64,000 nucleotides of DNA from Warburgia ugandensis (lineage: Eukaryota; Streptophyta; Magnoliopsida; Canellales; Canellaceae), in NCBI GenBank assembly GCA_035236585.1, contig CP141126.1, positions 65,449,414 to 65,513,413 on the forward strand, given 5' to 3'. Below are positions 7,637-60,084 of the stretch, one piece after another. The notes under the pieces are model-generated. The model did no database searches. It worked only from the letters and a program-made list of their open reading frames with translations, and was not told the origin of the DNA. Each line of letters opens with the position of its first letter. The stretch's first letter is position 1. A program made the position numbers and the translations under genes.

Positions 7637-7726
7637 TTGAGAAAAACCTTCGATGAATCTCCTGTAATATCCGGCAAGTCCTAAGAAGCTTCTTATTTCT
7701 GTGACTGTCTTAGGTCTTTCCCAGTT

Positions 7727-8326
7727 TTATACTGATTCAACCTTAGTAGGGTCAACTGCTATGCCATCTTGAGAAATAATGTGTCCTAAGAAATTAACCT
7801 TTTCTAGCCAAAACTCACACTTACTGAATTTTGCATATAGCTTGTGTGCTCGTAGGGTGCTTAATGTTATCCTTAGATGTTCCATATGGTCTTCAAGAGT
7901 TTCAGAATATATTAAGATATCATCCACAAACACTATGATGAATTTATCTAAGTACTCCTTGAACACCCTATTCATGAGGTCCATAAACGCGGCTGGAGCA
8001 TTAGTCAAACCAAAGGACATCACTCTGAATTCATAATGGTCGTATCGAGTCCTGAAGGCTATCTTGGGGATATCTTCTTCTCGAACTCGAAGTTGATGGT
8101 ACCCTGATCGTAGATCAATTTTAGAGTAGAATCTAGCTGACTGAAGTTGATCGAAAAGATCATCAATTCAGGGAAGAGGGTACTTATTTTTAATGGTGAC
8201 CCTATTCAGCATCCGATAGTCTATGCACAATCTCATGGAGCCATACTTTTTCTTAACAAAAAGGACTGGAGCTCCCCACGGAGATACGCTAGGTCGTATG
8301 AACCCTTTGTCAAGTAGTTCCTGTAA
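7727..8326 (-). pseudogene. Reverse transcriptase domain, two internal stops
   Basis: The palm motif FVDDILIYS (FVDD codons 7919-7930, equivalent to YVDD) and [15 protein letters not shown] mark the RT. The upstream half, between 8024 and 8326, reads through [13 protein letters not shown], the IDYRMLN motif and [14 protein letters not shown]. It is broken by TGA at 8168-8170 (normally CGA in the [10 protein letters not shown] motif) and by TAG at 8327-8329 at the protease/RT boundary. A TAA at 7727-7729 ends the downstream frame just before the NWERP motif that normally continues into the connection region. Confidence 0.92.
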
Positions 8327-9040
8327 CTAGGTCTTCAGGTCTCTTAGTTCTGCAGGAGCCATTCGGTAAGGAGCTTTGGAAATGGGGGAAGTACCAGGTA
8401 TAAGGTCAATGATGAACTCAATTTCCCTTGGTGGAGGTAGACCTAGTAAGTCCTCAGGGAATACGTCAGGAAATTCTCGGACCACCTTGACATCCTCAAG
8501 CTTTGGTTGGGGATTCTCGATGGATTCAATCTTGGCTAAGAAGAAGGGGCATCCCTGAGCAATGTGCTTAACTGCTTTCAAGGCAGAAATAACGCACGCT
8601 CTAGAATAATCCTTTCTTCCTTGGAGGGTGAAAGTGTCTCCATTAGGTAGGGTAAAAGTGACACGTTTCTGGCGGTAATCAACAAAAGCTTGATGAAAGG
8701 CTAGCCAGTCCATACCTAGGATGATGTCAAAGTCATTCATATCTAAGTGGATAAGGTTGGCATGTAACAAATGGTCCTTAATCAAAATGGGGACATCCTG
8801 GAGGTAAGAATAAGTGGGGAGTGCCTGGCCTACAGGAGTCATGACTTCTAGAGTGAAGTCTAGGTCCTGTGGTATAATGTCCAAGGATGATGCAAATTCC
8901 CGGGATATGAAAGAATGAGTAGAGCCTGTATCAAATAGAACTTTAGCAGGTGTATCATAGATAGAAAGAATATCTTCAATGACTGCATTTGATGCTTGGG
9001 CTTGACTGGAAGTGAGGGCAAAGACACGTCCTTGGCTTTT
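8327..9040 (-). pseudogene. Retroviral-type aspartic protease and linker to RT
   Basis: The catalytic triplet DTG (FDTGSTHSFIS) is encoded at 8924-8932, followed by the NDFDIILGMDWLA motif near residue 55 of the downstream open frame and by FPDVFPEDLLGLPPPREIEF, the conserved lead-in to the RT. The frame is offset from gag, with the shift near 9075, and ends in TAG at 8327. The protease would cleave the Gag-Pol precursor. Confidence 0.9.
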
Positions 9041-10023
9041 TGGAACTTGATCTTCTTTACGCTCTTGTACTTTCCTTTTGGACAGTTACTAGAAAAATGT
9101 CCTAATTCTCCAGAACTATAGCAAGTGATGTTGAAAGTGGGACATGGTTTGCCTGGATGATTTCTGTTACACCTAGAGCATGCCTTCCAATCTGGTCTTC
9201 TTCCTTTGTTTTCAAATGGCTTCTTGAAAGGTGGCCTAGGTCCAGATGACTGAAAGGGTCCCTTTCCTTTGTTCTTCATGGTGTTGATGTTCTTAGTTTC
9301 TCTTATTGCCTGGTTCCTTAGGTAATCTTTTTCATATAGGGAGGCCATCTCTACGGCTTTGGCTACTGTGGAAGGTTGGAAACCTAGAACTCTGTTCCTG
9401 AGTCCTGGGTTGAGTCCATCTACAAATCTTTCGGCCGCATCTTCCTCATCAGCACAAGCACGGGGTGCAAATCTTCGGAGGATGATGAATCTACTTTCAT
9501 ACTGTTGGACTGTTATATTTCCTTGTTCTAAGTCCATAAATTCCTTTTCCTTCTGTTTCCTTATATGTTTAGGATAATATTTGTCATTAAAGACCTTTTT
9601 AAACTCTTCCCAGCCTATTGTTTCTTGCTGATCAAAATAAGTTCTTTCTGCTGTTTCCCACCAAAAGGTAGCCTCTCCTCTAAACACAAATGTGGCCATG
9701 GGTACTTTTCTTTCTTCAGCTATGTTCATGGCCTTAAATATCTTTTCAATATCAATTAACCATTTTTCAGTTGTAGATGCTTCATCTTCTCCTGTGAATG
9801 AGGGAGCTAGTTTCTGAAACATTTCTAATTGAACCTCAGTCCTATATATTGCTTTATCAAGGGAAGGATCTCGGGGGGTAGGAGTTTGGCTTTGACTATT
9901 CATGTATTGTCCCATGTTCTATAAGAATTGTTGGAATAACTCAGCCATCCCGTTGCCCTGTCCCAGTGGAGTCCACTGGTCGGGTTCAGGTCTTGGAGCA
10001 TTGCTTCCCTTCTTCCTAGGCAT
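8860..10023 (-). pseudogene. Gag polyprotein, with an early stop and a damaged zinc knuckle
   Basis: The natural start is probably the ATG at 10021-10023 (MPRKKGSN...). Codon 35 is TAG (9919-9921), so the longest open piece restarts at 9915 and has 351 codons. The retrotransposon gag domain spans about residues 45-200 of that piece (FVFRGEATFWWETAE, FNDKYYPKHIRKQKEKEF, ITVQQYESRF). Two zinc motifs follow: C246-C249-H253-C258, and a knuckle C265...H273...C278 in which the second Cys is Ser268. After about residue 280 the frame is shifted relative to protease, and the last 70 residues are out-of-frame sequence. Confidence 0.93.
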
Positions 10024-10150
10024 CTGTAATCACAAGGCAATTCACCAAATCTCAGTTTTGTGCTATCCTATTACCCCTTACTCTTTCATGGATGAAACTT
10101 GATTATAAGTTATTCTCCTCATAACTGGGCTGTGAGTAACGTTAAACCGG

Positions 10151-10162
10151 GCTCTAATACCA
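10151..10162 (-). other. Primer binding site, tRNA-iMet type, of the chromovirus
   Basis: The minus strand reads TGGTATTAGAGC two bases after the 5' LTR end (GTGACA). It differs from the common iMet primer site TGGTATCAGAGC by one C-to-T change. Confidence 0.9.
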
Positions 10163-10164
10163 AC

Positions 10165-12783
10165 TGTCACGACCTGGGTTTTTATATGATGCAATTTTGA
10201 TAAAAAGGCGAGATCTCTTGTTTTATTAGTATGAGATGCATGAAAATATTTTTCGTTTGGAAAACAATCTTTCATAAAAACCCCGAGTGTCAAAACACAT
10301 TCTCAAATTATTTAGCCATGGCAAAGCTTTTGAATCAATATTATTCCCAAGAAAGTGTTAGTCACAACCCCAGCTATTAGAGAGTAACTACAATCAAGTA
10401 ACATTGAAAGATAAGGTAGGGGTTTTACTTACTTGTACTTAGTCTGGATGGTTCCTAGCACAAGCGTTCCTTGGCTCTTAAGTATTTACTTGGTGTCTGA
10501 AAAATGTTGAGGATTGGGTGAGTATATACTATACTCAGTAGGAGCCTATCACTACTAGTTTTATAATGCATGAGATGTTTTAAAATCATATGCTCATTCA
10601 AAACATGTGCATGTCTAAATACTCAAGCTCAATATCAGTATAAGAATCCGTTATCAAACTGAAATACTAATGACTTAAAGGATCACATAATCCAAAATTG
10701 AAAGTATCATATACATATATATGATAACATCATGATATGCAATAGATGCTTCATGGAGTCCAACTCATGGATCTCTAGTATGGTATGGTCGACCAACCTC
10801 ATATCATGCCATATGCAATGCACATAAATCATCAAACCATAGGGTCCACTATGCCCACGACCTCCTCACCGTGTGGTCCCCGGGTACCTGAGGACACTCG
10901 GTCATAGCATCCACGGGGCCTATGACACGTCGACCCAGTGCCGTGACACCTGTGGTAGCCCCCTGTACCACATGCAGTCGACGTAGGGACTTGCCTCTTT
11001 TTAGGCGTGGTACCCATCCACCTAATAGTGGTAGAGGCCGGGTGGCCAACCCAGACCCCTCGGCATAGCACCCACGGCCTTACTTGCCCAAATCACATAA
11101 GATTTAATAAGCCAAAACCTCTTTTTAAAACCTGTCCTCTTTGGGTACCTCACAACTGCCTGGCCCTCGGAGTCTTTTGGCAACCCTCAAGGACATGCAA
11201 TCTTTGCAAGTACTTAAATCATGCAATGTATGCACTTGTTTGCAAAACATATATGTGCACAATGTATATGCAATCATTTACAAAACATGGCTATGTGCAA
11301 AGCACTTATCATGCATGCTGAATTAAGTCATGCAAATCAAGTCATATATTTAAAACATATGTTCTCAAAACAATAATAGTTCTTTTAAAAGAATCTAATA
11401 GTGATAGAGCACCTACCTGGCTAGGTCGCGCTAACCCTTTTGTCCACGGACGCTCCTGATCATGGTTTGGGGAATCAAGGTTAGTTTGGCCTATCTTTTA
11501 TGGGTTTTTAGAGTAATTGGTCTTATTACTTAGGCATTAGGGGTCCATACCTATGCCTATGGGTGTCCTAAGGTCCTAATTGGGCCTTAGTGTCCTCAGT
11601 TTTCCAAAGTTCTAGTGGCCACATGCCGCCATCCTATTCTAAGGGTCATGCCCACCTTTGATTAGGCCTTGATCAGGGATTTTATAGTTTTTATATGTCC
11701 GTGCCATCGACACGGACACAACGCCTTTAGCGGCGCCTCAATCGGAGCTCTAGATCTCAAGTTATAAGCGTTTTAGTGTCGTATGTACATAGGAGTCTTA
11801 AAAATAAAAAGACGGAATGCTAGGGTGCTGCGCGTCTGCGACGTGCGCCCCAGCTTCCTTAAGGAACCAAAAACATAACGAACTGCTAGCGCATTGAGCT
11901 TTTGCAGTGGGTGCCTCAGCGGGCGCGTCTGCAGACGCGCCGGGTTTTCCGCCCGACGGTCTCTTTTGCGAGCATGTCCCTGGACGCGCCCGTTTGGTTT
12001 TTCAAATGCGAGTCAACGCAGGACGACGTGTGACGTTCCTATTGGATCGTCTTGCTCGTTGGGCACCCGGGTCATCCTCAGGTCACCCTGGTTCAACCCT
12101 GTCAAACCAGTGCGGCCCAGGGGATGTCCCTGGGTCCTTGGTGGCTCTCCTGGGCTCCGTTTTGCATGGTTTTTCATGCAAAAACCTAGGGAAATCATTC
12201 TTGGAACTATGGTGGAGATGGGTTTTGAGCGATCTCGGACATACCAGGTTCGTTGCTAGGTTCTTCTCCTTGTTTTCCCCTCTAGGTCACTGCTCCACGA
12301 CTGGTTTTTCTTCAACGTTTTGGGCTGCCATTAGAAGTGCCCAAGAGCTCTATTTATAGAGCTAAGAGAGGGTTCTTGAGGGGGCTCTCACCGCCTTTGA
12401 ATGGCAGTGGAGAAACCTCCAAAATGGCGGTGATTTCTCCTCCAATCACCGCCATTCTAGAACCCTCTAGAGGTTAAAGATGAAGGGGTGCCCGTATCAA
12501 AACGGGCCCCTGTGTTTTGCAGGTTAAACCATTTTTGTAAAATTTACAGTTTTGCCCCTGAACTTCAAAGGGCCATATCTTGCTCATTTTAACTCCGTTT
12601 TGGGTGATTTTGGTCTCATTGGATTCATTTTTCTGAGACGCATCTAATGGAACCATTTTTAGGACCAAATTTCTAGGGTCAGTCAAGGTGAATAGTGAAA
12701 TAACTAAAATGCCCTTTTCTTTAAAAACTGAACTTTTCATTGCTAAACTTGAATTTCAATATTACAGAATTGGAGTCATTAGA
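10165..12783 (-). repeat. Chromovirus 5' LTR (right end)
   Basis: Repeat of 2987-5586. It starts TGTCACGACC on the plus strand; its outer end reads CATTAGA where the left copy has CATTACA, a one-base change in the terminal CA. The TATA box CTATAAATAG (minus) is at 12350-12359. Confidence 0.95.
12350..12359 (-). promoter_or_regulatory. TATA box in the chromovirus 5' LTR
   Basis: CTATAAATAG on the minus strand. In the 5' LTR this is the position that would drive the genomic RNA. Confidence 0.65.
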
Positions 12784-29690: not shown

Positions 29691-29708
29691 CATGTTAGGG
29701 TTTCCACA

Positions 29709-29829
29709 CTTTGAATAAGCTGAAGATAATTTTCATTATCTTCTCTTCTTACTTGCAAACTAATATACATATGCATATTTATTTGCAAGTAAGAAGAGAA
29801 AATAATGAAATCATCTTCAACGTCTTTAA
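29709..29829. repeat. Hairpin (fold-back) element, copy 1
   Basis: The arms 29720-29759 and 29782-29821 are almost perfectly complementary (core TCTTCTTACTTGCAAA / TTTGCAAGTAAGAAGA) around a short loop centred on ATATGCATAT. A second copy is at 48458-48575 in reverse orientation. Flanking sequence is also shared between the copies (29693-29905 versus 48595-48385), so the hairpin sits inside a larger repeat, perhaps the 5' part of the RTE family. Confidence 0.75.
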
Positions 29830-29899
29830 AAAGGTTTTACTTGCTAGCGAGCTCTCAATGCAAAATACTCCTCCTTTTTTATCTGGGCTTGGGACTGGC

Positions 29900-30800
29900 A
29901 TTAGTAGAGTCGAGATCACTAATAGAGAGACCGATGATTTTCCTATCACTATAGGATTGCACCAAGGATCGGAATTAATCCCATACCTTTTCACATTGGT
30001 TATGGATGAGTTAACAAAACATCTACATGAGGATACTCCATGGTGCATGCTATTTGAAGATGATGTAGTTTTAATTGATAAGACAAGGGAGGGCATAAAT
30101 ACAAAGCTAGAGTTATGGAAGAAGTATAAGAACCTAAAGGATTTAAAATTAGCTGAACTAAGATAGAGTATATGGAATGCAATTTTAGTGAGAAGAAGAG
30201 CCAGAATGGACCACCAATAAAGATTGATAACCAAGAAGTCCCCATAAAAGACCACTTTCGTTACTTAGGATTGATGATTCATGCGAATAGAGAGATAAAG
30301 AGAGAGGTTATGTAGAGAATCCAAGCAGGTTAGAACAAATGGAGATGTGCATGCCCTATAGATTAGAGTGTTGGGCAGTTAAAGAACATCACATTCATAG
30401 GATGAGTGTAGTAGAAATGGAGATGCTAAGATGGATGAGTGGCAAGACAATAAAGGATAGAATTAGGAATGAAAAAATTAGAGGAAACTTAGGGGTAGCA
30501 CTAATAGGCAACAAGATGAGGGAGATTAGACTTAAATGGTTTGGACATGTCCAACAAAGACTGAAAATGGCACCAATTAAAAGTAGTGAAACAATGCAAG
30601 TATAAGGTTCTAAAAGGGCAAGAGAAAAGCCCAAAAGAATGTGGATAGAAGTGGTAAGAAAAGAATTAAAAACTTTGAGACTAAATAATTCCATGGCAGT
30701 GGATAGAGGGGAATGTATGAACAAGACTCATGTGGCCTACCACTTATTGGGATAAGGTCTTGATGATGATGGTGGTGGTGTAATATATATATATATATAT
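29900..30800 (+). pseudogene. RTE-type LINE, 5'-deleted, RT C-terminal half
   Basis: Pieces of the reverse transcriptase are readable. TDDFPITIGLHQGSELIPY and LFTLVMDELT come first, then a palm motif reading CMLFEDDVVLID, where FADD is expected, and then TKLELW. Downstream (30339-30605) are ECWAVKEHHIHRM, MLRWMSGKT and RLKWFGHVQ, the conserved RTE tail. The element ends with GATGATGATGGTGGTGG and an AT repeat (30760-30804), matching the simple-sequence 3' ends of RTE elements rather than a poly(A). Stops and frameshifts break the frame near 30165 and 30320. The endonuclease half is missing. Confidence 0.85.
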
Positions 30801-46118: not shown

Positions 46119-46274
46119 CTAAACCCTGAAACCTCTGCTGTTCCTTCTCCCACGTGCCCTCTCGAATTTTCTCCCCTTCGAGCGAACGTAAGGTTTGGTG
46201 TGATTGTGAGGCACACCGGGTGCCTTGCCAAAGTGCCTCAGAGCTTCCCTTGACTTTGGGCCTCGGAGAAGAAC
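46119..46274 (-). CDS. RPL18: RPL18 exon 5 (last coding exon)
   Basis: It encodes the final 51 residues and stop of L18. The acceptor is ATGTTGCAG just before 46274. It is separated from exon 4 by 12,461 bp. The residues continue the protein exactly (QNT then VLLRGPK), and the C-terminus is rich in Arg/Lys as in all eL18 proteins, for contact with rRNA. Without this exon the neighbouring frames would look like unrelated fragments. Confidence 0.96.
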
Positions 46275-47342
46275 CTGCAACATTTTGCCAGAGTTTACCA
46301 TTATTAGAAACCGGTATCCCTAATTTCTCTTATTACAAATAAGTGGAATATAATATGGCATAATTAGTAATCTCGAACAGTTGAAACAACAAGTTCCCGT
46401 TATCTAAAGCAGCCATTGGAAAAGCACATTATACCCCACCCATGTTGGGACTCGCCTGGATTGGTCTTGATTGAAAAGAACCCCTCGGACAGTTTGTCCA
46501 ATAGGGATGCTTGGTATGCACTATCATCAATCTTTACGGCACAACCTTTCTCAGTAAGCTGAAATCACGCCAACCACAAATGCAAGCATAATAAGTGGCG
46601 ACGAAGTTCCCTTCAATTGCCACTTTCCATGTTTAACAATCAAGGTTTGCTTCAAGCAAATTACTCAAAAGAAAAAGCGATTCAAACAAAGCTTCAGTAA
46701 AATGTTCTTGAAAGAGCAGTCCACGATACAGGAGATTCAACCAACACAAGACACAAGAAACTCACACCAAAGCTTGTAGTGTTAGTATTGCTAGAGATGA
46801 AGTGAGCTGGCTTGAAATGAGATGGGATATGGACTCGTGATGGATGAAGATGCAACTTAGTAGTCATCTAAGAGATTATTTTCAACTCAATTCATCACAA
46901 GCACCACTAACAGTGATATGGCCCATCTCATCTCAAGTGAGCTCACTCCATCTCAAGAACCAGTGACACCCTTGCGCGCACACACACACACACATGCAGG
47001 CACACTTATAAATGCATATTCATGGATCCAAGATGTTCAGTCATCAATCAGATAGCCTCAGTGCAAAAACCCAAAACCATTGGATACCTCCAAGGCTTTC
47101 ATTTCACGGTCAATAGGGTTTGTAAAGTGGACAATGTTTGGGAAACAGAGCACTAGTCCATTTAACAATCACACTGACCGAGAAATGAAGGCCTTCGAGG
47201 AATCCAATGGTTTAGGGTTTTGCTTCTAGGCTAGCTGGTTGATGCCTAAGAAGATGAACAATGTCTTAGACCCACGAAATGCACTTAGAAGTGGGCCCAC
47301 ATTTGAATTTGGTGCGGAGCCTATCGTGCCTCCTGAAGCACC

Positions 47343-47387
<45 letters not shown>

Positions 47388-50300
47388 CCACAATTAGGAG
47401 AAAACGGATAAGGAGGGTCATGCAGAGTTTTCAAATAAAATGTTGTAGATCAACTAGTGACTTGTTTTATTTGAAATTGCAATCAATTTGTCCATGTTTT
47501 CAAGTTCAAAGAATACAATTTGGATTTAATTATGTAAATAAGACCGCAAATGAAATGAAATCTGCATTATCATGTTCTAATTTTCAGTTCAAGATGCACC
47601 TAAATTGTTAATTTTTAATCCAAGCAACCACTAGGTTCAGGATTAAGAAGCCATTACATTTCACTTTCCAGTCCAAAGGATTACCATGATTGATCTCAGA
47701 AAAATAGCCAAGCAGTCATCAAACTCGATTTTGCCAAAGAAACTCTCAACCAACGTAATAAAATTTACCTATAATTACAAAGTCATCAAGGCAGAATATA
47801 ATCAGATCAGCGTCATCATGTTCTAACTTTCAGCTCAAGAAGCCCCTGCATTGTTATTCTTAATACCAAGCAATCACTAGGCCCAGGATTAAGAGCCATT
47901 ACATTTCATTTTCCAATCCAAGGGGCCGCAGTAATTGATTTTGGCAGAAGAGCCAAGCGGTCATCAAACTTTATTTCAAGCAGCAGTGCCGTCAAACCAC
48001 CTAACAAGATTTACCTATTGGGAATCCATCTTCAGTACATGTTAGCTTCAGCCATCATCTTCCTTCCATTCAAACATTAACCACAGAGAATGAAAAGAAA
48101 CTTTGGATGCTGCCACATTTTGAATCTTCCTTGGACTACCATTTTCAAGAGCAAGACACATATTTAACAACCATCAAGATACGGCAAGGCACATCACAGA
48201 AGAAGGTTTAGAAAAGGTGAGAGAAAAAGCATTAACAAAGCTATCGAAGCGAATGCTAGACCCATGGCTTGTAGCAGGCACATTGATAAGAGCCACTTAC
48301 TAGCTCACATTGTCAAAGATGTTGAAACAATGAAAACCCCTTAAGATAAAATAAAAACCATTTAACTTAGCATTAGTGCAGCCACACAACTTTGCTGATG
48401 CCGGTCCCGAGCTCGGATGAAAAAGGAAGAGGGTCTTGCCTCAGGTGCCAGCCGACAAAAAAGAAGTTGAAAATGATTTTGTTATTTTTTCCTACTTGCA
48501 AATGAATATGCATTCGTATATTAGTTTGTAAGTAAGAAGAGAAGATAATGGAAATCATCTCCAACTTCTTTAAAGTATGGCAACCCTAATATAACATGAA
48601 TCAAAACTAACATTCTCTCAAGCTAGTGCTTTCCCATAAGCAACACACTGCATTGGATCCTACTTGCAGTGAAAAATGGGCAAGGGTTACTAGAGAGTTC
48701 CCCACGAGCGCCACGCTACATCAGATCCCAGATCTAGTAAAAAATGGGCAAGGGCTGCTAGAGTGTCTCCTTGGAAGCAACACAATGCATCAGAATCCAG
48801 GTGCAGTGAAAAGTGGGCATGGGTTCATGCCATGGAGGTCGAGAAGTGCGCGAGTAAATAGGCTTGAGCACAAGATTCATATCACCACATGGAATATAGG
48901 GACATTAACAAGTAAGAGTCTGGAGTTAGTAGATACGTTGAAATGTTGGAAAGTTAACATTGCATGTATCTAAGAAACCAAGTGGAAAGAGCCTAAAACT
49001 AGAGAAATCGATGAGTATAAACTCTGGTTTGTACAAAAAGATAATAACAGAAATGGCGTAGGAATAATAGTGAATAAAGAATTAAAGGATAAAGTTGTGG
49101 ACGTTAAAAGTATCAATGATAAAATTATAATAATAAAACTTGTTTTAAAAGAGCATATCATAAATGTTATAAGTGCATATGCAACACAAGTAGGGTTAGG
49201 GAATATAATCAAGAGACAGTTTTGAGTAATGTGGAGGGAGTTATGTAAGAAATTCCCAACACATATTAGATGTTTATAAGAGCATACATAAATGGCCATG
49301 TAAGAGAAGAAAATAAAGGATAAGAATTATAAATTTTTATCAACGCAAATCATGTAACCACATGCAGCTTAGAAATCATCCCTTAAAAGACAACGTAGAA
49401 AAGTACTAACTAACAAAACAGGATAAAACAATAATAATTTGGCCTTGTACCAAACGCGGCTTCACACCCATGAGAAGGAAGCTAGAATGAGGAATCTACC
49501 AAGTCTAACGAAATTTTCATTCATTTTTCATAAAAAAAACTACTTACACAAAAGAGAAAAAGATCTTAAATAGGGGACATCCAACCCTAATCTAATAAAA
49601 AGACATAATTGCCCTTACTTAAGTCACAACACACTAAGAAACCTAATACCCTTAATGGTAAATATCCCAAGTAAACTAAACTATAACATAACATTAAAAA
49701 AAAAAAAAAGTGGCATGATGGTCCCCATCAATAGGGTACATAGAGGATATGATATTGGAGAAAAAAATGAGCTGGAGAAAGTTATCCTCGATTTTTCTTT
49801 GACATATAACCTCAGTCTAGCAAACACATACTTTAAAAAGAGGAATAAACACTTATTAATCTTTAAAAGCGAATCATATAAAAGCTAAATAGACTTTTTT
49901 CTACTTAGAAATACCAAAAGATCAATGTGTAAGGATTGTAAGGTGATACCTGAGAGTTTAACCATACAACATAGGTTAATGGTTATGAATATTTAAATTA
50001 AGAAATAGGAGAAAGGAAATGTACTTAATAAGTGTATAAAAACTAAGTAGTGGAACTTAAAATGAGAGAAGATAACATCATTCACAAATAAGTTCATAGT
50101 AAAAGGAAAGTAAAAAATTGAAACCTAAATAAACACCATGTGGCCTAATATAGCCAAGTTCATTAAGAAAGTGGCAAAAGATGTTCTAAGAAGATGTAAA
50201 TATAAAGGGCAACTAGTAAAGAAAAGTTGGTGGTGAAGTGAAAAAGTGTAAAAAGTTATTAAAGAGAAACGAGTGTGTTACAAAGTTTCGCAGAAAACTA

Positions 50301-53300
50301 GAAATAACGAAAACTTTGAGCAATATAAGAATGATAAAAAGGTTGCTAAGAGAATAGTGAGGCTAAACTCAAGGCGTATGATGATCTGTATAATAGATTA
50401 GGGTTAAGACAAGGTGAAAAAGATGTGTTCAAACTTGCAAAAATAAGAGGAGAGAATAAGGACTTAAACTACATTAAATGCATTAGAAGTGATGACCAAA
50501 GACCAAAGGATACTAGTAAAAGATGACAAAATCAATCAAAGGTGCGAAAGTTACTTTCAAAAATTATTAAATGACATTGGATTATATAGAGAATATAGAG
50601 ATTGAGAGAATCATAAACCCAAATAACATTGGATTATATAGGTATGAACATGGGACCAGGATATCTAAAGTAAAAAAAGCCTTGAAAAAGATAAAATCAG
50701 AAAAGGTCCTGGAGCTTGATAGTATACTAATTTTCTTAAGTATATGTGAGATACTAGAGTATTTTGGCCAGCAAAGTTGTTTAAGAAGATTGTATAATTG
50801 AAGAAAACGCCACGTGAATGGAGAAAATGCTCTACCGCACCAATTTATAAGAACAAATGAGCCATACAAAGTTGCAGTAATTATCGTGGGATTAAAATTA
50901 TGAGTCATACCACGAAACTTTGAGAAAGAGTAATTGAGAAGAAGTTACGACATGAGTGTATTGAAAAACCAATTTGATTTCATGCCTAAGAGGTCTACCA
51001 TGGAAGTTATTTTCCTACTTAAACAATTGATAGAGAAATATAGGTAGAGGCAAAACCTCCACATGATCTTTATTGACTCAAAGAAAGCTTATGATAGGGT
51101 CTCTAAAGAGTTAATGTGGTGGGTGTTAGACGAAAGTAAGGTTTCACGAGGGTATATAGACATAATTAAGAGCAATAACAAATATTAGGACCGATAGTAG
51201 AGAGACCAATGATTTCCTTATCATTATTGGATTGCACCAAGAATCGACATTGAGCTCATACATTTTCACATTATTAATGGATGAGTTTACAAAACATCTA
51301 CACAAAGAGACTCCATAGTGCATGTAATTTGCAAATGACATAGTTTTGATTAACGAGACATGGGAGGGCATAAACATAAAGCTAGAGTCGTGGAGAGATA
51401 CTATAAAGTCTAAAGGATTTAAAATTAACCCAATTAAGATAGAATATATAGAATGCAATTTTAGCAAGGAGATAAGTAAGAATGAAGCACCAATAAAGAT
51501 TGATAACAAAAAGTCCCCTCAAATACTTGAGATTGATAATTTATGAGAGTGAAGAGATTGAGAAGAATATTACCCAAACAATCCAAGTGGCTCGGAACAA
51601 ATGGAGATGTGCCTCTAAAGTTTTATGTGATCAACTAGTGCCACTCAAACTGAAAGGAAATTCTATACAATGATTGTACGGTCAGTAGTGCTCTATGCAG
51701 GCGCGACTAGTCAATAGGCGCAGCCTTGCGACTCAACTAAGGCCAGGCACAGAAGGTTTAAGGCGCAATGCGACTAGGCATGGAACTTTCTACGCCCCCA
51801 ACTCCAAGTGCACAGTAAGTGATATAAAAACCCTATTTTCCCTTTATTCTTCTTCTTTTTCTTCCTAGACTTTCTTTCTTCTTCTAGCAACCATCCTCAT
51901 CTTCTAGTGGCAATTGAAGCTTTATTGAAGTGATTAAAGGTAAGAAATTTAAGATTTTCGTTGGGTGTTTACTATTATATGCTTTCTGATAAATCTAGTA
52001 AAAACAGTGCCATTTTTTCACTTTTAATGATCAATGCTTGTTTTTTGTCTAAAATGTCAACATATCTACACTCTAATGCTAAACGAAAACTTCATTTCAT
52101 CATTCTCATTTCTTTTTAGAGATTTAATATAGTATTTACTCTTTTTTTTAGTTTCCTGTATTTTTTACCCAAAATTATGATATATATATATCAATATTTT
52201 TTACTCTAATTTTTGTGGAATGCATCCATAGGTTTGCATTATATAGCTACAAACGACATTTTCATGCTATTCTTTCATTTTATTTTTTTACCTCTTTTTC
52301 TTTTTTTTTCATTACTTTTCACTAAAAACTGTAAAACACAGTATATAGTTGGTTTTTTTTTTTTTTTTGTAATAAATGTGTAAATGTTTCCATTATAATA
52401 CTAAAATTGACAATCCTATATCAATGTTTTCATAATACAATATGTTTTTTTTGTTACTTTCTTGTAAAATTCATGCAATACACTACTGGTTTTTTGTTAA
52501 TTTCAGCTATAATTGTAAAAAAATCATTCTAATGCTAAAAACTAACAATTCCACATCATCCTTTTCATAATTTGTATGGGTTTTTTTTTACTTTTTTTGT
52601 TTTTCTTTGTTATTTTCTTGTAAAATTCATTAAATACACAATTGTTTTTTTGTTAATTTCAGTAGTACTAGTAAAAAAATCATTCTAATGGGAAAAAATG
52701 ACAATTCCACATCATCCCTTCATAATTTGTATTTTTTTTTTTTGCTTTCTTGTAAAATTCATGAAATACATTACTATTTTTTTGTTAATTTCGGTAGTAA
52801 TAGTAAAAAAGTCATTCTAATGCTAAAAAATGACAATTACACATCATCTTTTTCATAACTTGTATATTCTTTTACTCATGAAGTATAGTCTATTTCCTAC
52901 CTTCCCATATAACAAAAGAAACAAATGTGTATTCTTTCCATTCTAATGCTAACAAGTGATAAATCCACAACATATTTTTCATATTATCTATGTTTCTTTT
53001 AACTGTTTTTTAATTTGTTAATTTCTTATATTTTGTTAACTTTGTTTACAAGGTTCAAATCAACTTAGGTTTCCAATCCACAAAACATAGACTATAATAT
53101 GTCTCCATCAAGGGGTTCCAACAATAAAGGGGCAGCCCCAGTGCACTAAGCTCTCACCTATGCAAGGTCTGGGGAAGGGGCAGACCACAACGGCCTAAAG
53201 GGGTTCCAACAATGCATCATCAAAATCAACAAATCCAGGTTGGGAATATAGAGAGGCAAGGGATCCAACTGACAAAAATTTAGTTTGGTGCAAGTTTTGT

Positions 53301-54614
53301 GTCAATAGGTATAACGGTGGAATATTTAGATTGAAACATAATTTGACAGGTAGTCATAGAAATGCAAAAAAATGCTCTCAAGTGACTCCTAACATATCTA
53401 AGAAGATATTAGATTATATTAATGAATCAACGAAAAAGGAGAACAGAGAGAGAATAATAAAGGAGATGGAGAGGCTAGAGAATTTATTTGGCTTGCACAA
53501 TGATGATGATGATAATGATGATGACGAGGTAGAGGAAATTGATAGTACTAAGACTGGTGGTATTTCCATTAGAAGGAAGAAGTGCAAGGGAAAGACACCC
53601 ACACAACAAACAACAAAGGGACCTATTGCCTATCTTTTTGCTCCTAACTCTGAGGCCCAAGGTAAAGGAAAGGCACTCATGCAGCAAACGACAATGAACA
53701 GAGCTTATAAGGAGTTTAGGACGAGTGTGCGATTACATCGCCTCTTGGTTCCATGAAAATAGCATTTCTTTCAATGCTGCTCGTTGTCATTCCTTTCAGA
53801 CAATGTTAGAAGCAGTTGCACAACATGGTCCAGGTATATATCTTATACTTTAAATAATTAATACTTAATAATTTAATACTTGTTTTAGCCATTTATCTAA
53901 TCTTATGTGACTAAGGTTTCAAGACACCCTCATGTCACGAGTTGAAGGTGAGTCTTCTTCAGAAGCAAGTAGAAAAGACAAAAGAATACATAGATTAGTG
54001 TAAAGCTAACTGGATTAGGTGTGTTCAATATTCTTTTTCTCATCCTTGTATTATTGTATATTCCTTTCAAATCTCAGGGAGACACTGACAACAAGAGTGC
54101 TTCATTAGGTATGGGTGCTCCATCATGTCGGATTGGTGGACTGAAGGCAAGAGTCACACCTTGTCAACTTTTTAGTGAACTGTCCAACCACGACATTTTT
54201 CTGAAATCTATTGATGGATCTGCGCATGTCAAGAGAGCAAACTTAATACTTGACATGCTGGAGAAGGTGATTGATGAAGTTGGAGAGAACAATGTAGTTC
54301 AGGTAATTATTTAATTTTATATCTATAATCTGTTAAGTATTTTAACTTGTTTATAATGCAAGTTCACCCTATATAATTTTACCTTTTTTTATATCTTAGT
54401 TCATAACTGACAATGCCTCCAACTACATGGCTGTGAGAAAGGAGTCGATGGTGAGGAGGCCACATTTGTATTGGACCCCTTGTGCGACTCACTACGTAAA
54501 TCTGATGTTAGAGGACATAGGCAAATTGCCAATTGCGAAGGAAACTGTGACAGAAGCTAGGGCAATAATAGTTTTTATATATAGCTACACACATGTCCAT
54601 CTTATGAGAAGATT

Positions 54615-54650
<36 letters not shown>

Positions 54651-57600
54651 GGATTTATCCAGGCCTGCAATGACGCGCTTCGTCCCCAACTTCTTGAGCT
54701 TAGAAAGCATTAACAACTTGAAGTTAGAGTTGAGGGCAATGTTCCACTATTCAAAGTAAATGAATAGTAAATAGCCGAAAAGTTATAGCTACACTTGTAG
54801 AGGCTTTGAGGGTAGTGGACAATAAAGGCAAGCCAGCGATGGGATACATCTTTAAGGCTACAGCCAGGGCCAAAGACAAGATTCAAGCCAATCTAGCAGG
54901 GGATCAGCAGCAAGCCACTCATATTTGGGGGATCATAAACACTAGATGGAGTTCTCAGATTCACTAGACTTTTGCATGCAACGTGATATTACCTCAACCC
55001 ATCCTTCTACTACAACCATGACATGGAAATTGAGCGCAACAATGATATCAAAAATGATCTAATGCATACCATCAGTAGGCTATATGATGGAGATGAGGCT
55101 TATATAGTGGTAGATGAGATATCCATTTACAGACATGCTAGAGGCTTGTTTGGAAATGACATAGCAATACGCAAGAGAAAAATCCTAACCCGTAGTAAGT
55201 GTTTTATGTTATTCTATGCTTTTAAGTTTTAACTTCTATATTTTATTTTATAATATTATGATTTTATTTATTTTTTTAACTTTAATTTTCTTCAACTTTT
55301 GTAGGTGAGTGGTGGATTAACTTTGGGGCTAAAGCCCCACATCTTCAAACATTCGCCATTAATGTCCTCTCCCAGATATATAGTGCATCTCCTTGCGAGT
55401 GCAACTGGAGTGTCTTCAAGAACATAAGCTACTTAGATATTAAGATTTAATACTTAAAAGTTATTAGTAATTTAGTATACATTCATTGTATTCTAAATTT
55501 ATAATTACTTTTTCTCTTCAGATCCACATTAAGAAGAAGAATAGACTGCACAGTAAGACATTGAAAGATCTAATATACGTTCAATACAATCAACACCTTC
55601 GTTGTCAATATGAGGATCATTTGAAAATGCAAACGTATACAGATCCTATTATGTTACGAGAGGTTGACAAAAGTGATGAGTGGATTGTTCAAGAAGATGC
55701 TGGAGATGATCTAGTGCTTCAAAGTGATGACCTCACCTGATTAGACGTTGAGCTTTCTAAAGGATCAAGTGAATGTGATGCTCTATCTACTAGGTAATAC
55801 TAGAGGTAATGGAGAGGGCAGAGGGGGAGTCGCATTTCTCAGTTTCAAGCTCATCAAGAACTAGATAAGGATGTTGGAGAAGAGCAAGACAATAAGGAGA
55901 CTGAGGAGGAGGATGTCTACATCTCTCAAGGAGATGATTCTGATGACGATCTTGATATTCCTAATGTGGAAGAGGTGCAGGAAGATGACTCTTGAAGTCT
56001 TAGTAGTTAACTCTAACATTTGCTTTACTTCATTTATGGAACCATTGTTTAATTGTTTATTGTTTCTGGATTTACAAGAAGATGGTGATGATGACGAGAC
56101 CACAACAAAATGAGGGAGTCGCAAAGATTAGAAAGACCACAACAAATTGTATGATTCTCAACTTACTTCTTTGTGTATGATTGTTTAATTTTACCTTAGG
56201 TTGTTGTTGTTTACAAGTATTTATTCATATCTTTATATTTCTATATTTTCTCATTTTTTAGAATTTTTTCCAATTTTTGGGATTTATTTTTTATTTTTTA
56301 AAAATTTAAAATACTCAATTTTACTCCTTGACACAAGTCACACCCTTTCCAAGTGCACCTTGCTCCTACAACTACATAGACCCTGCTCTATGAATCAATA
56401 TGGGGAGTCAAGGAACAACATGTACATAGGATGTGCTTAGCTAAAGTGAGGATGTCGAGATGGATGAGTGGCAAGATAAGAAAGGATTGAATTATAAATG
56501 AAAATATTAGAAGAAACTCAAAAATAGCACCAATAGATAACAAGATGGGGGAAGGCAGACTTAGATGGTTTGGACATGTCCAATAAAGAGCAAAAATGGC
56601 ACCAGTTAGGAGTGAGTCTATCCAAGTTGAAGGCTCTAAAAGGGCAAGGAAAAGGCTCAAAAGGAAGTGAATGGAAGTTGTAAGAAAATATTTTAAAACT
56701 CTTGGACTAAACAAGGCCATGGCCATGGATAGAGGGAAATAGAGGAACAAGATTCTTGTAGCCGACCCCTAATCGAGATGAGGCTTTGATGATGATGACC
56801 TACAACATGAAAAACTCTCGTAGAAGCCCCTAATGCAAGCACAACCCCTTCAAATAGCCTCAACGACAATAAAATGCCTGTCATGGCTCAAGATCATAAT
56901 CAGTTTCTTCCTTTCATTTACAATACACCTGCTTCAAAGCTTTCAAATTTAATACCAGGTCACTCCATTATGACCCAACATCATGATCTAATTTCACTCC
57001 ACCTTTTACAATTTCTTGCCCCAAAGCTTTAAATGTATTGCAACTTACTCCCTTACCTTATTACTACTTCATCCCAGACCCTGTACCTAACCATCTCATC
57101 CCCACCCTATCAATCTAACCCATTGTTTTATCAGCTCCAAGGCTTCCAAAAAAAATAAAAAAAGCCCAAATGTCATCACACCAAGGCAACAGAGCTTAAC
57201 CTAATTTTTAAGTCAAGAACACTAAGCTTAACCATAAACTCTTTTCACTCCTTGATGAAGGACACCTTCTCTTATTCAATCTTGTGCTAGCTGATAAATA
57301 TTGAGGAAACCCTCCATTCTCATCATGACTTTTCATTCTCTAATATTACTAGCTTTGACCAAGTAGTAAAGAACCTCCAAACTCATCCCAGCAACATCAA
57401 TAAGCCAAATCTCTCCTCCAACTTTGCCTTATTCTTCCACTGTTCTCAATAACGAAAACCCAAGTACATGTCCCTACTCTCTCTATTGCAGGGAGGAGCA
57501 TAAAATGATTTTCAAGGATAATAACATTTGGATCCAAATTTCTTAGTTTCATTTCCAATGCTGCTGAAATTTGATTGCATCCTACTACAACGTTATAGTA

Positions 57601-59418
57601 TACAACCAAAAAAGGATTGACGAAAAGCTAGTTACAGAATTCCATTCTAATTCAACCAACTGCTCTCTTGAGCTATAAGTTCAGACTATTTGGGCAAGTG
57701 AAATGGAAGGAATTATGCATCGTCCTTTCATCTCATATATACACCCAAAGATCATATACCAGTCTACAATAAGTCTTCTCAATGTCATCAAATTAGTCTC
57801 ATGAACAACTTTCCTCAGACTGATACATGAGCATGGTTCATGACAAAGAGAAAATGTAGAAAATGATTAGTGTTTTGTTACTATGCTAAAGATAAATAAA
57901 AACACCATTTCATACAGATAACTCCAACTACAATCACCTACTAGCATGACAAGTGACTGTCGTAGCAGTCCTCAGGACATGCAAAAAGCAGCCACCTAGT
58001 CACTGAAACTAGCTAACAGAAATATGTATAAATAGAAGCACCAAATTGACTTCCCCAAATGATCTTAAAATCCATTTTAGTTCAGAATGATGAACGGTCT
58101 TTCTCTGCAATCAGTCGCTGTCTGTATTTCACTGTCCTTTCGCATTGCATTGCTTAAACAACACAAAGACCAGCTCAGGAAAACCTACTCTATGTCTTAC
58201 TTGATGCCAGACTGAAAGGAAGCGAATACATAGAACTGTCTTTGACATGATTTATTCTTTTCACTATCTCAATTGTAAGTCGACCTACTTTCACAAGTTA
58301 GAATCCTTAATCTCAAAACAATGAGTAATACGAGATAATGTCAAGAAAGACTAAAGGTATCTTCTCTTATGCATGAGATAAGCAAAACTCTTATGATCTA
58401 CTCCAATAGAAACATTTTGAACCTTCTTCAGTCCTTCACAATTTTAAACACATACTCAAGCACATATAAAAGCTTGAACCATAGAGAAAAGGGTTGACGC
58501 AATCATATTACCTAGTAGAACCTATGAATTTTTAAGAAGAAACCGATCCAAATCATCACTGACTGCCTCTACATTCAGAATCCAATTGCACCACTTAATT
58601 GCATAAGGCGAGTACCAAAGATTAAGTAGGTTGTGTTAAAAGCAACTAATCAAGAAAAGCCAACAGAGGGAAGTACATGTACAACTAACAAGAACCAAGT
58701 AATTTCCCAAATCAAGAAGAAAGAATGAATATTACCGTGTTCTGGCCAAGTGGAGCACGAAGTGCAAGCTGATCGAAATTCAAACACTCTCCACCAGCTT
58801 TGAGAATCCTGGCTCTTGCCGTCTCAGTAAACCTCAATGCCGTCACCTTCAATGCCGGGACTTCGTACAAACGACTATCATCTGTCACTGTACCAACAAG
58901 AACAGCGATCTTATCCCCCTGCAAAAGCAACCCACGAAAATCAATATACAAGAATAAAAGAAGTAGTAACATATACCACCAGATAATTGGAAGAAGAGCG
59001 AAAATTCTGACCTTTCCTTTCATGAAGCACGCAAGCCTCGAAAGAGACATGGGAGGTTTGTTAGTTTTGCTCATGAAGAGACGTTTCAGAATGACGGCAT
59101 TGAATTTACTTCCGGTTCTTCGGACAAGAAACCTGTAAAGCTGATCGTGGAAACGGTCATTCAGATAGAGATACATACAGAGATAACGATGCAGAGAGAT
59201 TTCAGTAGAGATTACAAACCTTGACGAGAAGCTTGAGGTAAATATCACCCGATTTAGGGGAGGTACGCTTCGTCTTCTTACTTTTACCTCCAGCTACCAG
59301 ATCGATGCCCTGCGGTAAAAATGAACAGAAAACGTCACAAAATGAAATTCCAAGAATAATGAAGAACGGCTGAGATGTGTAAAGAAGGAAAGAAACTTTA
59401 ACAGGGAAAGAGCACCAT
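46119..59418 (-). CDS. RPL18: 60S ribosomal protein L18 (eL18), five exons
   Basis: The product is a core protein of the large cytosolic ribosomal subunit. The spliced minus-strand exons are 59416-59418 (ATG only), 59220-59309, 59012-59140, 58736-58918 and 46119-46274, all joined in phase 0 with GT...AG introns. The product is 186 residues, close to the usual 187 for plants. It starts [16 protein letters not shown] and contains [65 protein letters not shown] and, in the last exon, [27 protein letters not shown] and RNSRGFRV followed by TAG. The ATG-only first coding exon is a known plant RPL18 arrangement. No stop or frameshift is present, so the gene appears functional. The exceptional feature is intron 4 (12.46 kb), filled with nested transposons. 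Expression cannot be judged from sequence. Confidence 0.96.
46791..46958. repeat. Small fold-back element in RPL18 intron 4
   Basis: GAAGTGAGCTGGCTTGAAAT (from about 46795) is inverted as ATCTCAAGTGAGCTCACTCC (ending near 46950), and GAGATGGGATATG pairs with GATATGGCCCATCTC. The spacing is about 90 bp. This is MITE-like; no target duplication is certain. Confidence 0.6.
46976..46994. repeat. (CA)n microsatellite
   Basis: GCGCGCACACACACACACACA run within intron 4. Confidence 0.9.
47349..47385. repeat. (GA)n microsatellite
   Basis: About 18 GA units in intron 4. The apparent 110-codon frame across it (47279-47611) is a repeat artefact. Confidence 0.93.
47563..48018. repeat. Diverged tandem duplication, period about 246 bp
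   Basis: CATCATGTTCTAACTTTCAG at 47814 repeats ATTATCATGTTCTAATTTTC at 47567, and CACTAGG.TCAGGATTAAGA, GCCATTACATTTCA, AAGC.GTCATCAAACT and TTTACCTAT recur in the same order in both units. Unit 1 is about 47563-47787 and unit 2 about 47809-48018. Confidence 0.75.
48458..48575. repeat. Hairpin (fold-back) element, copy 2
   Basis: Reverse-oriented copy of 29709-29829. Arms AAGAAGTTGAAAATGATTTT and AAATCATCTCCAACTTCTT enclose a TACTTGCAAAT...TTTGTAAGTA stem. The shared flank with copy 1 extends to about 48385 (GGGACCGGCATCAGC, on the minus strand). Confidence 0.72.
48640..48838 (+). repeat. Tandem repeats in the LINE 5' leader (three units of 68-69 bp)
   Basis: Units start at 48640 (GCAACACACTGCATTGGATC), 48708 (GCGCCACGCTACATCAGATC) and 48777 (GCAACACAATGCATCAGAAT); each contains GTGAAAAATGGGCAAGGG or a close variant. 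Confidence 0.85.
48880..49910 (+). pseudogene. RTE endonuclease (APE type), interrupted
   Basis: [20 protein letters not shown] (about 48887) is the typical APE-type N-terminus with the catalytic-site Asn in [28 protein letters not shown] and [11 protein letters not shown] follow in order. The GGDLNGHVG-equivalent region near 49270 is reached in a shifted frame ([10 protein letters not shown]), and then about 0.4 kb of foreign sequence intervenes. The endonuclease resumes at 49727 with [35 protein letters not shown] and IDFFLL. Stops are present after NIACI and elsewhere. Confidence 0.85.
49300..49709. mobile_element. About 0.4-kb insertion ending in A14 within the endonuclease
   Basis: This stretch breaks the endonuclease homology between NGHV and RVHRGYDIG. 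It ends with 14 adenines (49696-49709), which suggests a retroposed sequence on the plus strand. I do not recognise the body and could not find clear flanking duplications, so its class is unknown. Confidence 0.45.
50571..51697 (+). pseudogene. RTE reverse transcriptase, 5' portion to the hAT junction
   Basis: Readable motifs in several frames are [57 protein letters not shown], a [19 protein letters not shown] segment, FANDIVLIN (for FADDIVLID) and [17 protein letters not shown]. The reading reaches MIVRSVVLY at 51697, where the hAT element is inserted, and resumes past 56384. Confidence 0.87.
51690..51697. repeat. hAT target-site duplication GCTCTATG, left copy
   Basis: Eight bases repeated at 56385-56392. 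Eight bp is the standard duplication for hAT elements. Confidence 0.9.
52461..52870. repeat. T-rich tandem repeats in the hAT 5' region (period 132-156 bp)
   Basis: CTTGTAAAATTCAT starts units at 52461, 52617 and 52749. Each contains TTTTTTGTTAATTTC, ATCATTCTAATG and ACA(T)CATC.TTTTCATAA. The units differ mainly in T-run length. The upstream sequence (52370-52450) and downstream sequence (to 52960) carry weaker versions. Confidence 0.8.
53110..53125. repeat. 16-bp target duplication of the SINE-like insert, left copy
   Basis: AAGGGGTTCCAACAAT, repeated exactly at 53198-53213. Confidence 0.95.
53126..53197 (+). mobile_element. 72-bp truncated SINE-like retroposon
   Basis: The body contains GGGGCAGCCCCAGTGCACTA, CTATGCAAGGTCTGGGGAAG and CAGACCACAACGGCCTA. 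From memory this resembles the tail of the plant Au-type SINE family (GGCAGCCCGGTGCAC... GGTCTGGGGAAGGG). It is flanked by perfect 16-bp duplications, as expected for LINE-driven retroposition. The 5' tRNA-like half is absent. Confidence 0.82.
53915..54302 (+). pseudogene. hAT transposase middle exons (DUF659 region)
   Basis: After an AAG acceptor, [20 protein letters not shown] and KANWIR (53915-54017) form a short exon. The next coding block, about 54075-54302, contains the altered region [14 protein letters not shown] and then [36 protein letters not shown] and a GTAATT donor. These match the DUF659/hAT-like transposase core. Stops and small rearrangements in the first half of the block remove the usual WTD-type segment. 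Confidence 0.8.
54400..54990 (+). pseudogene. hAT transposase core exon with an in-frame poly-isoleucine tract
   Basis: The frame 54427-54759 reads [40 protein letters not shown], then HVHLMRRF, a run of Ile codons encoded by (ATA)n at 54616-54650, and [20 protein letters not shown]. The repeat lies where RRF normally joins TKDLSRPA, so it is an in-frame microsatellite expansion. Downstream the frame is lost at the SK(stop)MNSK region, but [19 protein letters not shown] and a [17 protein letters not shown] segment follow in other frames to about 54990. Confidence 0.83.
54614..54650. repeat. (ATA)n microsatellite within hAT coding sequence
   Basis: About 12 trinucleotide units; the reading is all isoleucine in the transposase frame. 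Confidence 0.95.
55000..55740 (+). pseudogene. hAT transposase C-terminal exons with dimerisation domain
   Basis: [20 protein letters not shown] and the [20 protein letters not shown] motif (55023-55190) precede an intron. [20 protein letters not shown] and [13 protein letters not shown] (about 55310-55425) are the hAT dimerisation motif, with a change from SERNWS to CECNWS. A last exon (from about 55523) reads [20 protein letters not shown], then [12 protein letters not shown] and [12 protein letters not shown], with a stop at 55738-55740. Confidence 0.87.
55741..56384 (+). mobile_element. hAT 3' non-coding end
   Basis: Decayed acidic-tail sequence up to about 56110 (GAT/GAG-rich), then AT-rich sequence and the right terminus. 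The two overlapping frames at 55861-56124 are products of the acidic repeat codons. Confidence 0.6.
56385..56792 (+). pseudogene. RTE LINE C-terminal region resumed after the hAT
   Basis: After the duplication GCTCTATG (56385-56392), LINE coding sequence resumes with [11 protein letters not shown], then [17 protein letters not shown] and [10 protein letters not shown], followed by GDD-like GATGATGATGAC at 56788. It is collinear with 30339-30780 of the other LINE copy. Confidence 0.88.
56793..58735. other. Rest of RPL18 intron 4, nothing recognised
   Basis: AT-rich sequence between the LINE 3' end and exon 4. I see no coding motif, hairpin or repeated segment here; the small open frames (such as 57397-57609) are not supported. 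Confidence 0.5.
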
Positions 59419-60084
59419 GGCTGCCGCTGCTGGTGGGTTCCTCTGTCGTGGCTCTGCTTCTGGTTAGGGTTTTGTGGAGCGCGGGGGTAATATGTATCCG
59501 GATGAGGACTAGGGTTTTTGATAAAGAGTAGGTTCGTAGTGCTCGGACTAATAAAGCTTTTGTAGCTTGCCCTGACTAGGATCGTAGTCCTAGTAGTAGG
59601 GCCACCAGATAAACAACACTTAAAAAGCTGTAGACTGACGATTGGCTAAGCAGCAGGCGACTTTTGTGAATAATGTTAATAACTTAGATATTGCCAAAAT
59701 CAGTGTCTTACGCATGTGACGTAGTTGTTTGATTATTGGCTGGCACAAGCTTGTTCCAACTTTATGAGATAATCGATTTTTATGTTTGGTAATTTAAACG
59801 ATTTGTTTGCTAATCTGAAATTTCTTAGTCCTCTAGTTTATTCTTCACAACACTAATTGCTTGGGTCATCACAACACTAAGTTCTATTAGTTAAGAGATA
59901 TCTTAAACAACCAGTCTTGGTACCGGCGTGCCTAAGGAGTCATAAGCTAGTACATCTTGACGACAAGAAGGCGGATCACAAAACCAGGTTTTGCTCATCT
60001 CCGCAAATGCAGCTCCTCCTCCCAGAATGTCTGTTGCTTATTTCCCTTCTCTCTTAGTGGGATATGGAGTACCGGTCCAGTTGG
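59419..60084 (-). promoter_or_regulatory. RPL18: RPL18 5' UTR and promoter with telo-box
   Basis: Upstream of the ATG, the minus strand carries AAAACCCTAACC (59465-59476), a telo-box (AAACCCTAA) typical of plant ribosomal-protein promoters, and a second similar AAAACCCTAGT near 59509-59519. No clear TATA box is seen, which is also common in this gene class. The L1 relic starts about 0.65 kb upstream of the start codon, so it limits the compact promoter. Confidence 0.7.

What the first reader, a model, noticed from the sequence alone, without database searches (positions are those of the whole stretch)
46275..58735. RPL18 carries a 12.5-kb intron with transposons nested three deep
The five exons encode an uninterrupted eL18 protein, yet the last intron is more than 100 times longer than the others. 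It contains an antisense RTE LINE, a hAT element within it and a retroposon within that. A housekeeping gene that must be spliced at very high rate tolerates a heterochromatin-like load, which invites questions about splicing fidelity and intronic methylation.
Basis: partly seen in the sequence, partly recalled or inferred. Interest (0 to 1): 0.75.

Follow-up and report, generated by a model that had tools for sequence, protein, structure and literature searches.

The report
Ribosomal gene with transposon-swollen intron
One of four intact-looking copies of a plant ribosomal protein gene carries a 12.5-kb intron in which a transposon sits inside a transposon inside a transposon; the nest looks old and the gene's protein has stayed under selection, so it is a well-documented example of a known habit of plant genomes rather than a new phenomenon.

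Summary
The minus-strand gene joins five exons into an intact 186-aa eL18 protein; introns 1-3 are 106, 79 and 93 bp, intron 4 is 12,461 bp (58735-46275). Empty sites show the three-deep nesting: the duplicate gene on contig C3 lacks the inserted block, four of four related LINE stretches lack the hAT, and 9 of 11 hAT copies show the SINE-like fragment's site empty (two had no match there).

The genome (1.12 Gb, 14 contigs; Warburgia ugandensis is inferred from size and chromosome number) holds four multi-exon RPL18 genes with fourth introns of 1.4, 1.5, 3.7 and 12.5 kb, plus a retrocopy, so this locus need not be spliced at a very high rate. About 4 kb of the intron lies outside the nested block, which adds 8.4 kb. 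The LINE's divergence roughly equals that since the gene duplication, so the block is old, while the protein stayed constrained (11 of 39 differences between the duplicates change an amino acid; P about 1e-8). Best reading: an old, tolerated, normally spliced intronic nest. Transcription, splicing and methylation were not testable. Long transposon-rich introns are reported as prevalent in magnoliids.

The parts
59416..59418 (-). RPL18 exon 1 coding part (ATG only)
   Evidence: same ATG|GT arrangement in all four paralogs
59220..59309 (-). RPL18 exon 2
59012..59140 (-). RPL18 exon 3
58736..58918 (-). RPL18 exon 4
46119..46274 (-). RPL18 exon 5 with stop (51 residues)
46275..58735 (-). RPL18 intron 4, 12,461 bp, GT-AG
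   Evidence: donor ACG|GTAATA identical in the C3 duplicate
59465..59517 (-). stretch with two AAACCCTA (telo-box) motifs at -99 and -54 from the ATG; the C3 duplicate has a pair too
   Evidence: meaning of the motif recalled
56800..58735 (.). donor-side part of intron 4 outside the nest, alignable in pieces with the C3 duplicate
46275..48384 (.). acceptor-side part of intron 4 outside the nest, alignable in pieces with the C3 duplicate
48389..48592 (.). palindromic MITE-like piece, also next to a LINE copy at 29692-29910
48600..51697 (+). LINE (RTE type by recalled hallmarks), 5' part; start approximate; RVT_1 match (below cut-off) at 51223-51450
56393..56799 (+). LINE 3' part ending in TTGATGATGATGA(C); 3' edge coincides with the alignment edge of the C3 duplicate
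51690..51697 (.). target-site duplication GCTCTATG, left (TGCTCTATG if 9 bp)
51698..56384 (+). hAT DNA transposon inserted in the LINE; DUF659 pieces about 53927-54567, Dimer_Tnp_hAT (below cut-off) about 55301-55423
56385..56392 (.). target-site duplication GCTCTATG, right
53110..53125 (.). target-site duplication AAGGGGTTCCAACAAT, left
53126..53197 (-). 72-bp 5'-truncated SINE-like retroposon inside the hAT (Au-SINE-like and its orientation by recall)
53198..53213 (.). target-site duplication AAGGGGTTCCAACAAT, right

Best explanation
This is a working member of a four-gene RPL18 family in a flowering plant (probably a magnoliid) whose fourth intron, probably already several kb long, gained a LINE around or soon after the gene's duplication; a hAT then landed in the LINE and a SINE-like fragment in the hAT. 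The spliceosome most likely removes the whole 12.5 kb by ordinary joining of 58736 to 46274, the donor, acceptor and flanking intron sequence having been left intact, and the nest is effectively neutral. Shown: gene structure, order of insertions, absence from the duplicate, long-term protein constraint. Inferred: present transcription and correct splicing, neutrality, the ancestral intron length, the dates, and the plant's identity.
For: Intact CDS and GT-AG introns. Duplicate on C3 has the same five-exon structure, intron 4 of 3,725 bp, and aligns in order with both ends of this intron but not with 48385-56799 apart from SINE-like repeats. Duplicates: NG86 dN 0.026, dS 0.243; 11 nonsynonymous of 39 differences where 72.5% is the neutral share, P 1.1e-8; on this gene's own branch 7 nonsynonymous to 9 synonymous polarised changes, P 0.014, or 2e-4 with 7 to 14, adding about half of the unresolved ones. 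LINE terminal branch 0.133 and hAT 0.116 against 0.128 per lineage (half of 0.256) in the aligned intron of the duplicates. Telo-box pair shared with the duplicate. LINE and hAT both lie antisense to the gene. If the plant is a magnoliid, long introns are the rule there: averages of 1.27-2.39 kb among orthologs of six magnoliid genomes (PMC8626473, passages); 1,336 bp in W. ugandensis (PMC11139940, passages).
Against: No transcript evidence at all. This copy has 7 polarised nonsynonymous changes against 3 in its duplicate, four of them at sites nearly invariant in the 17-sequence alignment. In exon 5 alone this branch has 3 nonsynonymous, 2 synonymous and 5 unresolved changes, which by itself does not exclude relaxed constraint. 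Arabidopsis and rice genes with intronic transposons or heterochromatin are expressed lower on average (PMC4417168, section 12; PMC7145194, passages), and highly expressed Arabidopsis and rice genes are compact (PMC2794262, abstract; the same abstract finds longer non-coding parts in broadly expressed genes). The paralog's site is not clean: 150 bp of C3 at the insertion point have no counterpart here, so no LINE target duplication could be named and the 5' edge is approximate. LINE and hAT branch lengths carry sampling error, and transposons may mutate faster than introns, which would make the insertions younger.
Confidence: 0.78

Rival explanations
1. This copy is now silent or mis-spliced: the nest attracted silencing, the other three RPL18 copies supply the protein, and the reading frame has not yet decayed.
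For: Three other intact multi-exon copies exist; more amino-acid changes on this branch than on the duplicate's (7 against 3); genes with methylated intragenic transposons are expressed lower in Arabidopsis.
Against: If silent since the LINE arrived near the duplication, about 24-37 amino-acid changes would be expected from the 9-14 synonymous ones at the neutral share (my arithmetic); 7 were seen. Splice sites, frame and paired telo-boxes are kept. Recent silencing is not excluded.
Confidence: 0.15
2. The long intron is kept because it does something, such as lowering or timing the output of this copy, or supplying an enhancer.
For: All four copies have a fourth intron of 1.4 kb or more; the parts outside the nest still align after the duplication; in Chloranthus genes with long introns are more highly expressed, declining above 40 kb (PMC8626473, passages).
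Against: The intron outside the nest diverged as much as synonymous sites (K2P 0.256 against dS 0.19-0.24), and intron 4 shows no match between the two RPL18 lineages in the three of four cross comparisons that were run.
Confidence: 0.05
3. The long intron is an assembly or gene-model artefact.
For: Only one assembly was available; no reads were seen.
Against: Exact target-site duplications at both inner insertions, empty sites in related copies, and order-preserving alignment of both intron ends with the duplicate.
Confidence: 0.02

Closest known systems
Long transposon-bearing introns of magnoliids and Chloranthales (PMC8626473, passages; PMC7917104, passage)
   Same: Intron lengthening with coding length unchanged; average introns of 1.27-2.39 kb among orthologs of six magnoliids, about 2,774 bp in Magnolia biondii.
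   Different: Reported there as genome averages, with LTR elements named as the major contributor in Chloranthus; here a ribosomal protein gene with a LINE/hAT/SINE-like nest and a duplicate in the same genome lacking it.
Genes with intronic heterochromatin regulated through IBM2-type factors (PMC7145194, passages; PMC4417168, abstract and section 12)
   Same: Transposons inside introns of genes that remain functional.
   Different: Whether this intron is heterochromatic, and whether such a factor acts here, was not testable.
Large Arabidopsis introns of 5-10 kb that are spliced (PMC5575664, search listing only)
   Same: By its title, plant introns near this size can be removed.
   Different: Different genes and species; not a nested insertion as far as the listing shows.

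Membership tests
eL18 (RPL18) | Full-length eL18 protein without internal stop | tested here: met
   Residues 1-186 align with 1-187 of a plant eL18 chain, E 8.4e-102
eL18 (RPL18) | Expressed and incorporated in ribosomes | not testable with these tools
   No RNA or protein data
hAT DNA transposon | hAT transposase domains | tested here: met
   DUF659 above cut-off in two frames (39.5 and 57.5 bits, cut-off 34.7); Dimer_Tnp_hAT below its cut-off, E 0.0029; frame broken. That DUF659 goes with hAT is recalled
hAT DNA transposon | 8-bp target-site duplication | tested here: met
   GCTCTATG on both sides; 9 bp if the preceding T is counted
hAT DNA transposon | Terminal inverted repeats | tested here: inconclusive
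   Ends CAGG / CCT(G) match over four bases only, by eye on the output
RTE-type LINE | Reverse transcriptase | tested here: inconclusive
   RVT_1 E 1.3e-5, 25.5 bits, below the cut-off of 29.6
RTE-type LINE | Short tandem-repeat 3' tail instead of poly(A) | tested here: met
   TTGATGATGATG ends 4 of 5 aligned copies; the fifth has TTGATGACTATGATGAC. Hallmark recalled
RTE-type LINE | Placement in the RTE clade by phylogeny | not tested
   No reference LINE set was compared
SINE (Au type) | tRNA-like head with polymerase III boxes | not tested
   The fragment is only 72 bp and I recall it as the 3' part; no reference was compared, so it is called SINE-like only
Target-primed retroposon insertion | Long target-site duplication | tested here: met
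   16 bp, exact; empty site in 9 of 11 hAT copies
Genes with intronic heterochromatin | Non-CG methylation or H3K9me2 over the intron | not testable with these tools
   No methylome; sequence footprint uninformative

The most novel reading that the evidence does not exclude
The nest may have turned one of two equal duplicates of a ribosomal protein gene into a low-output or condition-dependent copy whose full-length transcript depends on silencing of the intron, with premature ending in intron 4 (a protein without its last 51 residues) as the alternative. The C3 duplicate without the block would be a built-in control, and the arrangement would have lasted since about the time of the duplication.
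Probability: 0.12. Interest if true: 0.6.

Novelty: new member of a known kind. Interest (0 to 1): 0.33.

Why it matters
It gives a matched pair inside one genome: two duplicate genes for the same ribosomal protein with similar promoter motifs and the same intron-4 donor, one with a 3.7-kb and one with a 12.5-kb fourth intron, most of the difference being a roughly dated nest of transposons. Copy-specific RNA reads would tell directly what an intronic transposon load costs a housekeeping gene. Otherwise the case illustrates what is already reported for magnoliid genomes.

Tried and rejected
Methylation footprint: CHG observed/expected looked lower in the LINE (0.30-0.42) than in the intron outside the nest (0.78-0.86), but the majority sequence of the other LINE copies itself has almost no CG or CHG sites, and the C>T excess of the intronic copy (rate 0.187 against 0.071 for T>C) resembles that of the four other copies; dropped as evidence. 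Outside the nest, C>T-type differences were not more frequent here than in the C3 duplicate (106 against 135 summed over the six aligned stretches), so no sign of spreading was found.

Relaxed protein: the missing codon in exon 5 first looked like decay, but it is shared with the C3 duplicate, and 3 of the 16 relatives aligned have a one-residue gap there (Tasmannia lanceolata, Magnolia sinica, Thalictrum thalictroides); dropped. For the same reason it does not place the plant: Thalictrum is in Ranunculales.

Premature polyadenylation or rival donors: AATAAA occurs 15 times on the sense strand of intron 4 and 19 times on the other; no [N]AGGT[AG]AGT donor was found in the sense strand. Not decisive.

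LINE dating: five copies over about 0.8 kb gave a branch of 0.19-0.21 for the intronic LINE. Over the 3' 0.4 kb, with 11 further copies from the genome (40 of 9551 first-look candidates were scored) and without the copy at C3:41.98 Mb, it was 0.133, second longest of 15. The latter is used; the former would make the LINE older than the duplication, which its absence from C3 argues against.

How unusual the intron is among ribosomal protein genes: only eL15 and eL13 could be searched besides eL18. Gaps between matched exons were at most about 3.6 kb (eL15: two genes, longest gaps about 1.9 and 3.6 kb; eL13: three genes, longest about 0.45, 0.55 and 0.97 kb). Dropped from this count: three lone eL15 fragments (C5:7294239, C6:13594532, C6:4632840) and two lone eL13 fragments (C14:1549528, C8:56804760). 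Three other families were asked for and never answered.
Full report
Gene. On the minus strand five exons join into a 561-nt reading frame for a 186-residue eL18 protein with no internal stop; all four introns are GT-AG and measure 106, 79, 93 and 12,461 bp. The protein matches plant eL18 chains over its whole length. None of the 120 proteins listed by the protein search is more than 90% identical, and none of those for the C3 duplicate more than 93%; both lists show the best of thousands.

Genome. The window lies in G000, 1,122,538,268 bases in 14 contigs. W. ugandensis (Canellaceae, Canellales, magnoliids) is published with 1.12 Gb anchored on 14 chromosomes (PMC11139940, abstract and passages). 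I came to it through a search for Canellales genomes, prompted by a codon deletion shared with Tasmannia (also Canellales); that deletion turned out to occur in Magnolia and Thalictrum too, so it is no support.

Copies. The genome search with the protein gave 18 matches, which fall into four multi-exon genes and one intronless copy on C2 with in-frame stops. All four genes have the same five-exon structure; intron 4 is 12,461 (window), 3,725 (C3:41.96 Mb), 1,505 (C3:93.05 Mb) and 1,424 bp (C1:1.02 Mb). The window gene and C3:41.96 Mb form one pair (dS 0.243), the other two a second pair (dS 0.230; NG86), and intron divergences of the two pairs are alike (K2P 0.256 and 0.281), as one genome duplication would give; beyond the genes' near flanks the C1-C3 comparison showed mainly repeats, so a duplication of the whole region is not shown. 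The C2 retrocopy is closest to the second pair (84-86% against 70%).

Nesting. (i) Both ends of the window's intron 4 align in order with the C3 duplicate's intron, while 48385-56799 has no counterpart there apart from SINE-like repeats; the C3 alignment stops and restarts at 41960051 and 41960202. (ii) The LINE runs to 51697 and resumes at 56393; four related LINE stretches are continuous there, though one of them (window 30 kb) has a deletion just before the point. GCTCTATG stands on both sides. Pfam finds DUF659 in three pieces and a sub-threshold Dimer_Tnp_hAT in the insert, and a search with its first 701 bases gave 711 first-look candidates, 40 scored, some matching from base 1. (iii) In the hAT a 72-bp fragment stands between exact 16-bp repeats. 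Of 11 other hAT copies, 9 break off at 53125 (53124 in one) and resume at 53198 (53201 in one), overlapping by 16 bases in seven, 15 in one and 13 in one; 2 have no match in the region. The order LINE, then hAT, then SINE-like fragment follows from the nesting. Terminal branches fit it: 0.133 for the LINE's 3' piece among 15 sequences and 0.116 for the hAT among 12. Most splits in these trees are poorly supported, as expected for a burst, and the branch lengths are rough.

Age and constraint. The aligned intron of the two duplicates differs by K2P 0.256, about 0.128 per lineage, close to the LINE's 0.133. The LINE is absent from the duplicate, so it most likely entered soon after the duplication, or somewhat later if transposons mutate faster. 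With the rate of 1.51e-9 per site per year used in PMC8626473, dS 0.19-0.24 would be roughly 60-80 million years; the rate is not calibrated for this plant. Over that time the protein stayed constrained: 11 of 39 differences change an amino acid where 72.5% would if neutral (P 1.1e-8); on the window gene's own branch 7 against 9 (P 0.014), or 2e-4 when about half of the unresolved changes are added (transition bias of 2.5 assumed). Exon 5, which is useful only if the 12.5 kb are removed, has 3 changing and 11 silent differences between the duplicates; on the window gene's branch alone it has 3 changing, 2 silent and 5 unresolved, too few to decide.

Promoter and splice signals. Both duplicates have two AAACCCTA boxes at similar places (-99/-54 and -106/-63); of the second pair one gene has one and the other none. 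I recall the motif as typical of plant ribosomal protein promoters. The intron-4 donor ACG|GTAATA is identical in both duplicates.

How unusual. Among nine multi-exon ribosomal protein genes examined in this genome (four eL18, two eL15, three eL13), the 12.5 kb is the longest intron, the next about 3.7 and 3.6 kb (eL15 and eL13 values are gaps between matches). Three families out of about eighty (recalled) is a small sample. The passages read report long introns as prevalent in magnoliids (PMC8626473; PMC7917104), and one title states that Arabidopsis introns of 5-10 kb can be spliced (PMC5575664, listing). Two searches for ribosomal protein genes with large transposon introns showed no report of this case, judged by titles and first lines, among the 10 listed of 143 and the 9 of 9 papers.

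Verdict. The finding is real and its nesting is shown by empty sites. Its surprise shrinks with the other gene copies, the age of the nest and, if the plant is a magnoliid, the long introns of that lineage. What remains open, and is directly testable, is whether the two duplicates differ in output.

Noticed in passing
window 49320-49735: The endonuclease part of the LINE seems, by eye, interrupted by about 420 bp ending in an A-run, possibly a fourth insertion; a simple search for a target duplication of 7 bp or more printed none.
   Followed up: partly
window 47569-48018: A 246-bp tandem duplication in the intron outside the nest whose two copies match one stretch in the C3 duplicate.
   Followed up: partly
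window 47066-47221: A 61-bp inverted repeat (82% complementary, 34 bp apart) in the intron outside the nest.
   Followed up: no
L009 (C3 duplicate), intron 4: Five stretches similar to the SINE-like fragment lie in the duplicate's intron 4, in both orientations.
   Followed up: partly
L012 (C2:93715410-93715963): Intronless RPL18 retrocopy with in-frame stops, nearest to the second gene pair, with a tail shortly downstream that looks SINE-like by recall.
   Followed up: partly
L020 (C3:41929711-41931659): A hAT 3' part lies close beside a LINE copy, perhaps a second independent hAT insertion in this LINE family.
   Followed up: no
window 2986-12781: Two direct repeats of 2.6 kb, 94.8% identical, around gag/pol-like frames: an LTR element of gypsy type by eye, with further copies of the repeat at 35-42 kb.
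   Followed up: no
window 52443-53030: Tandem array with spacings of 126-156 bp in the hAT upstream of its first long frame.
   Followed up: no
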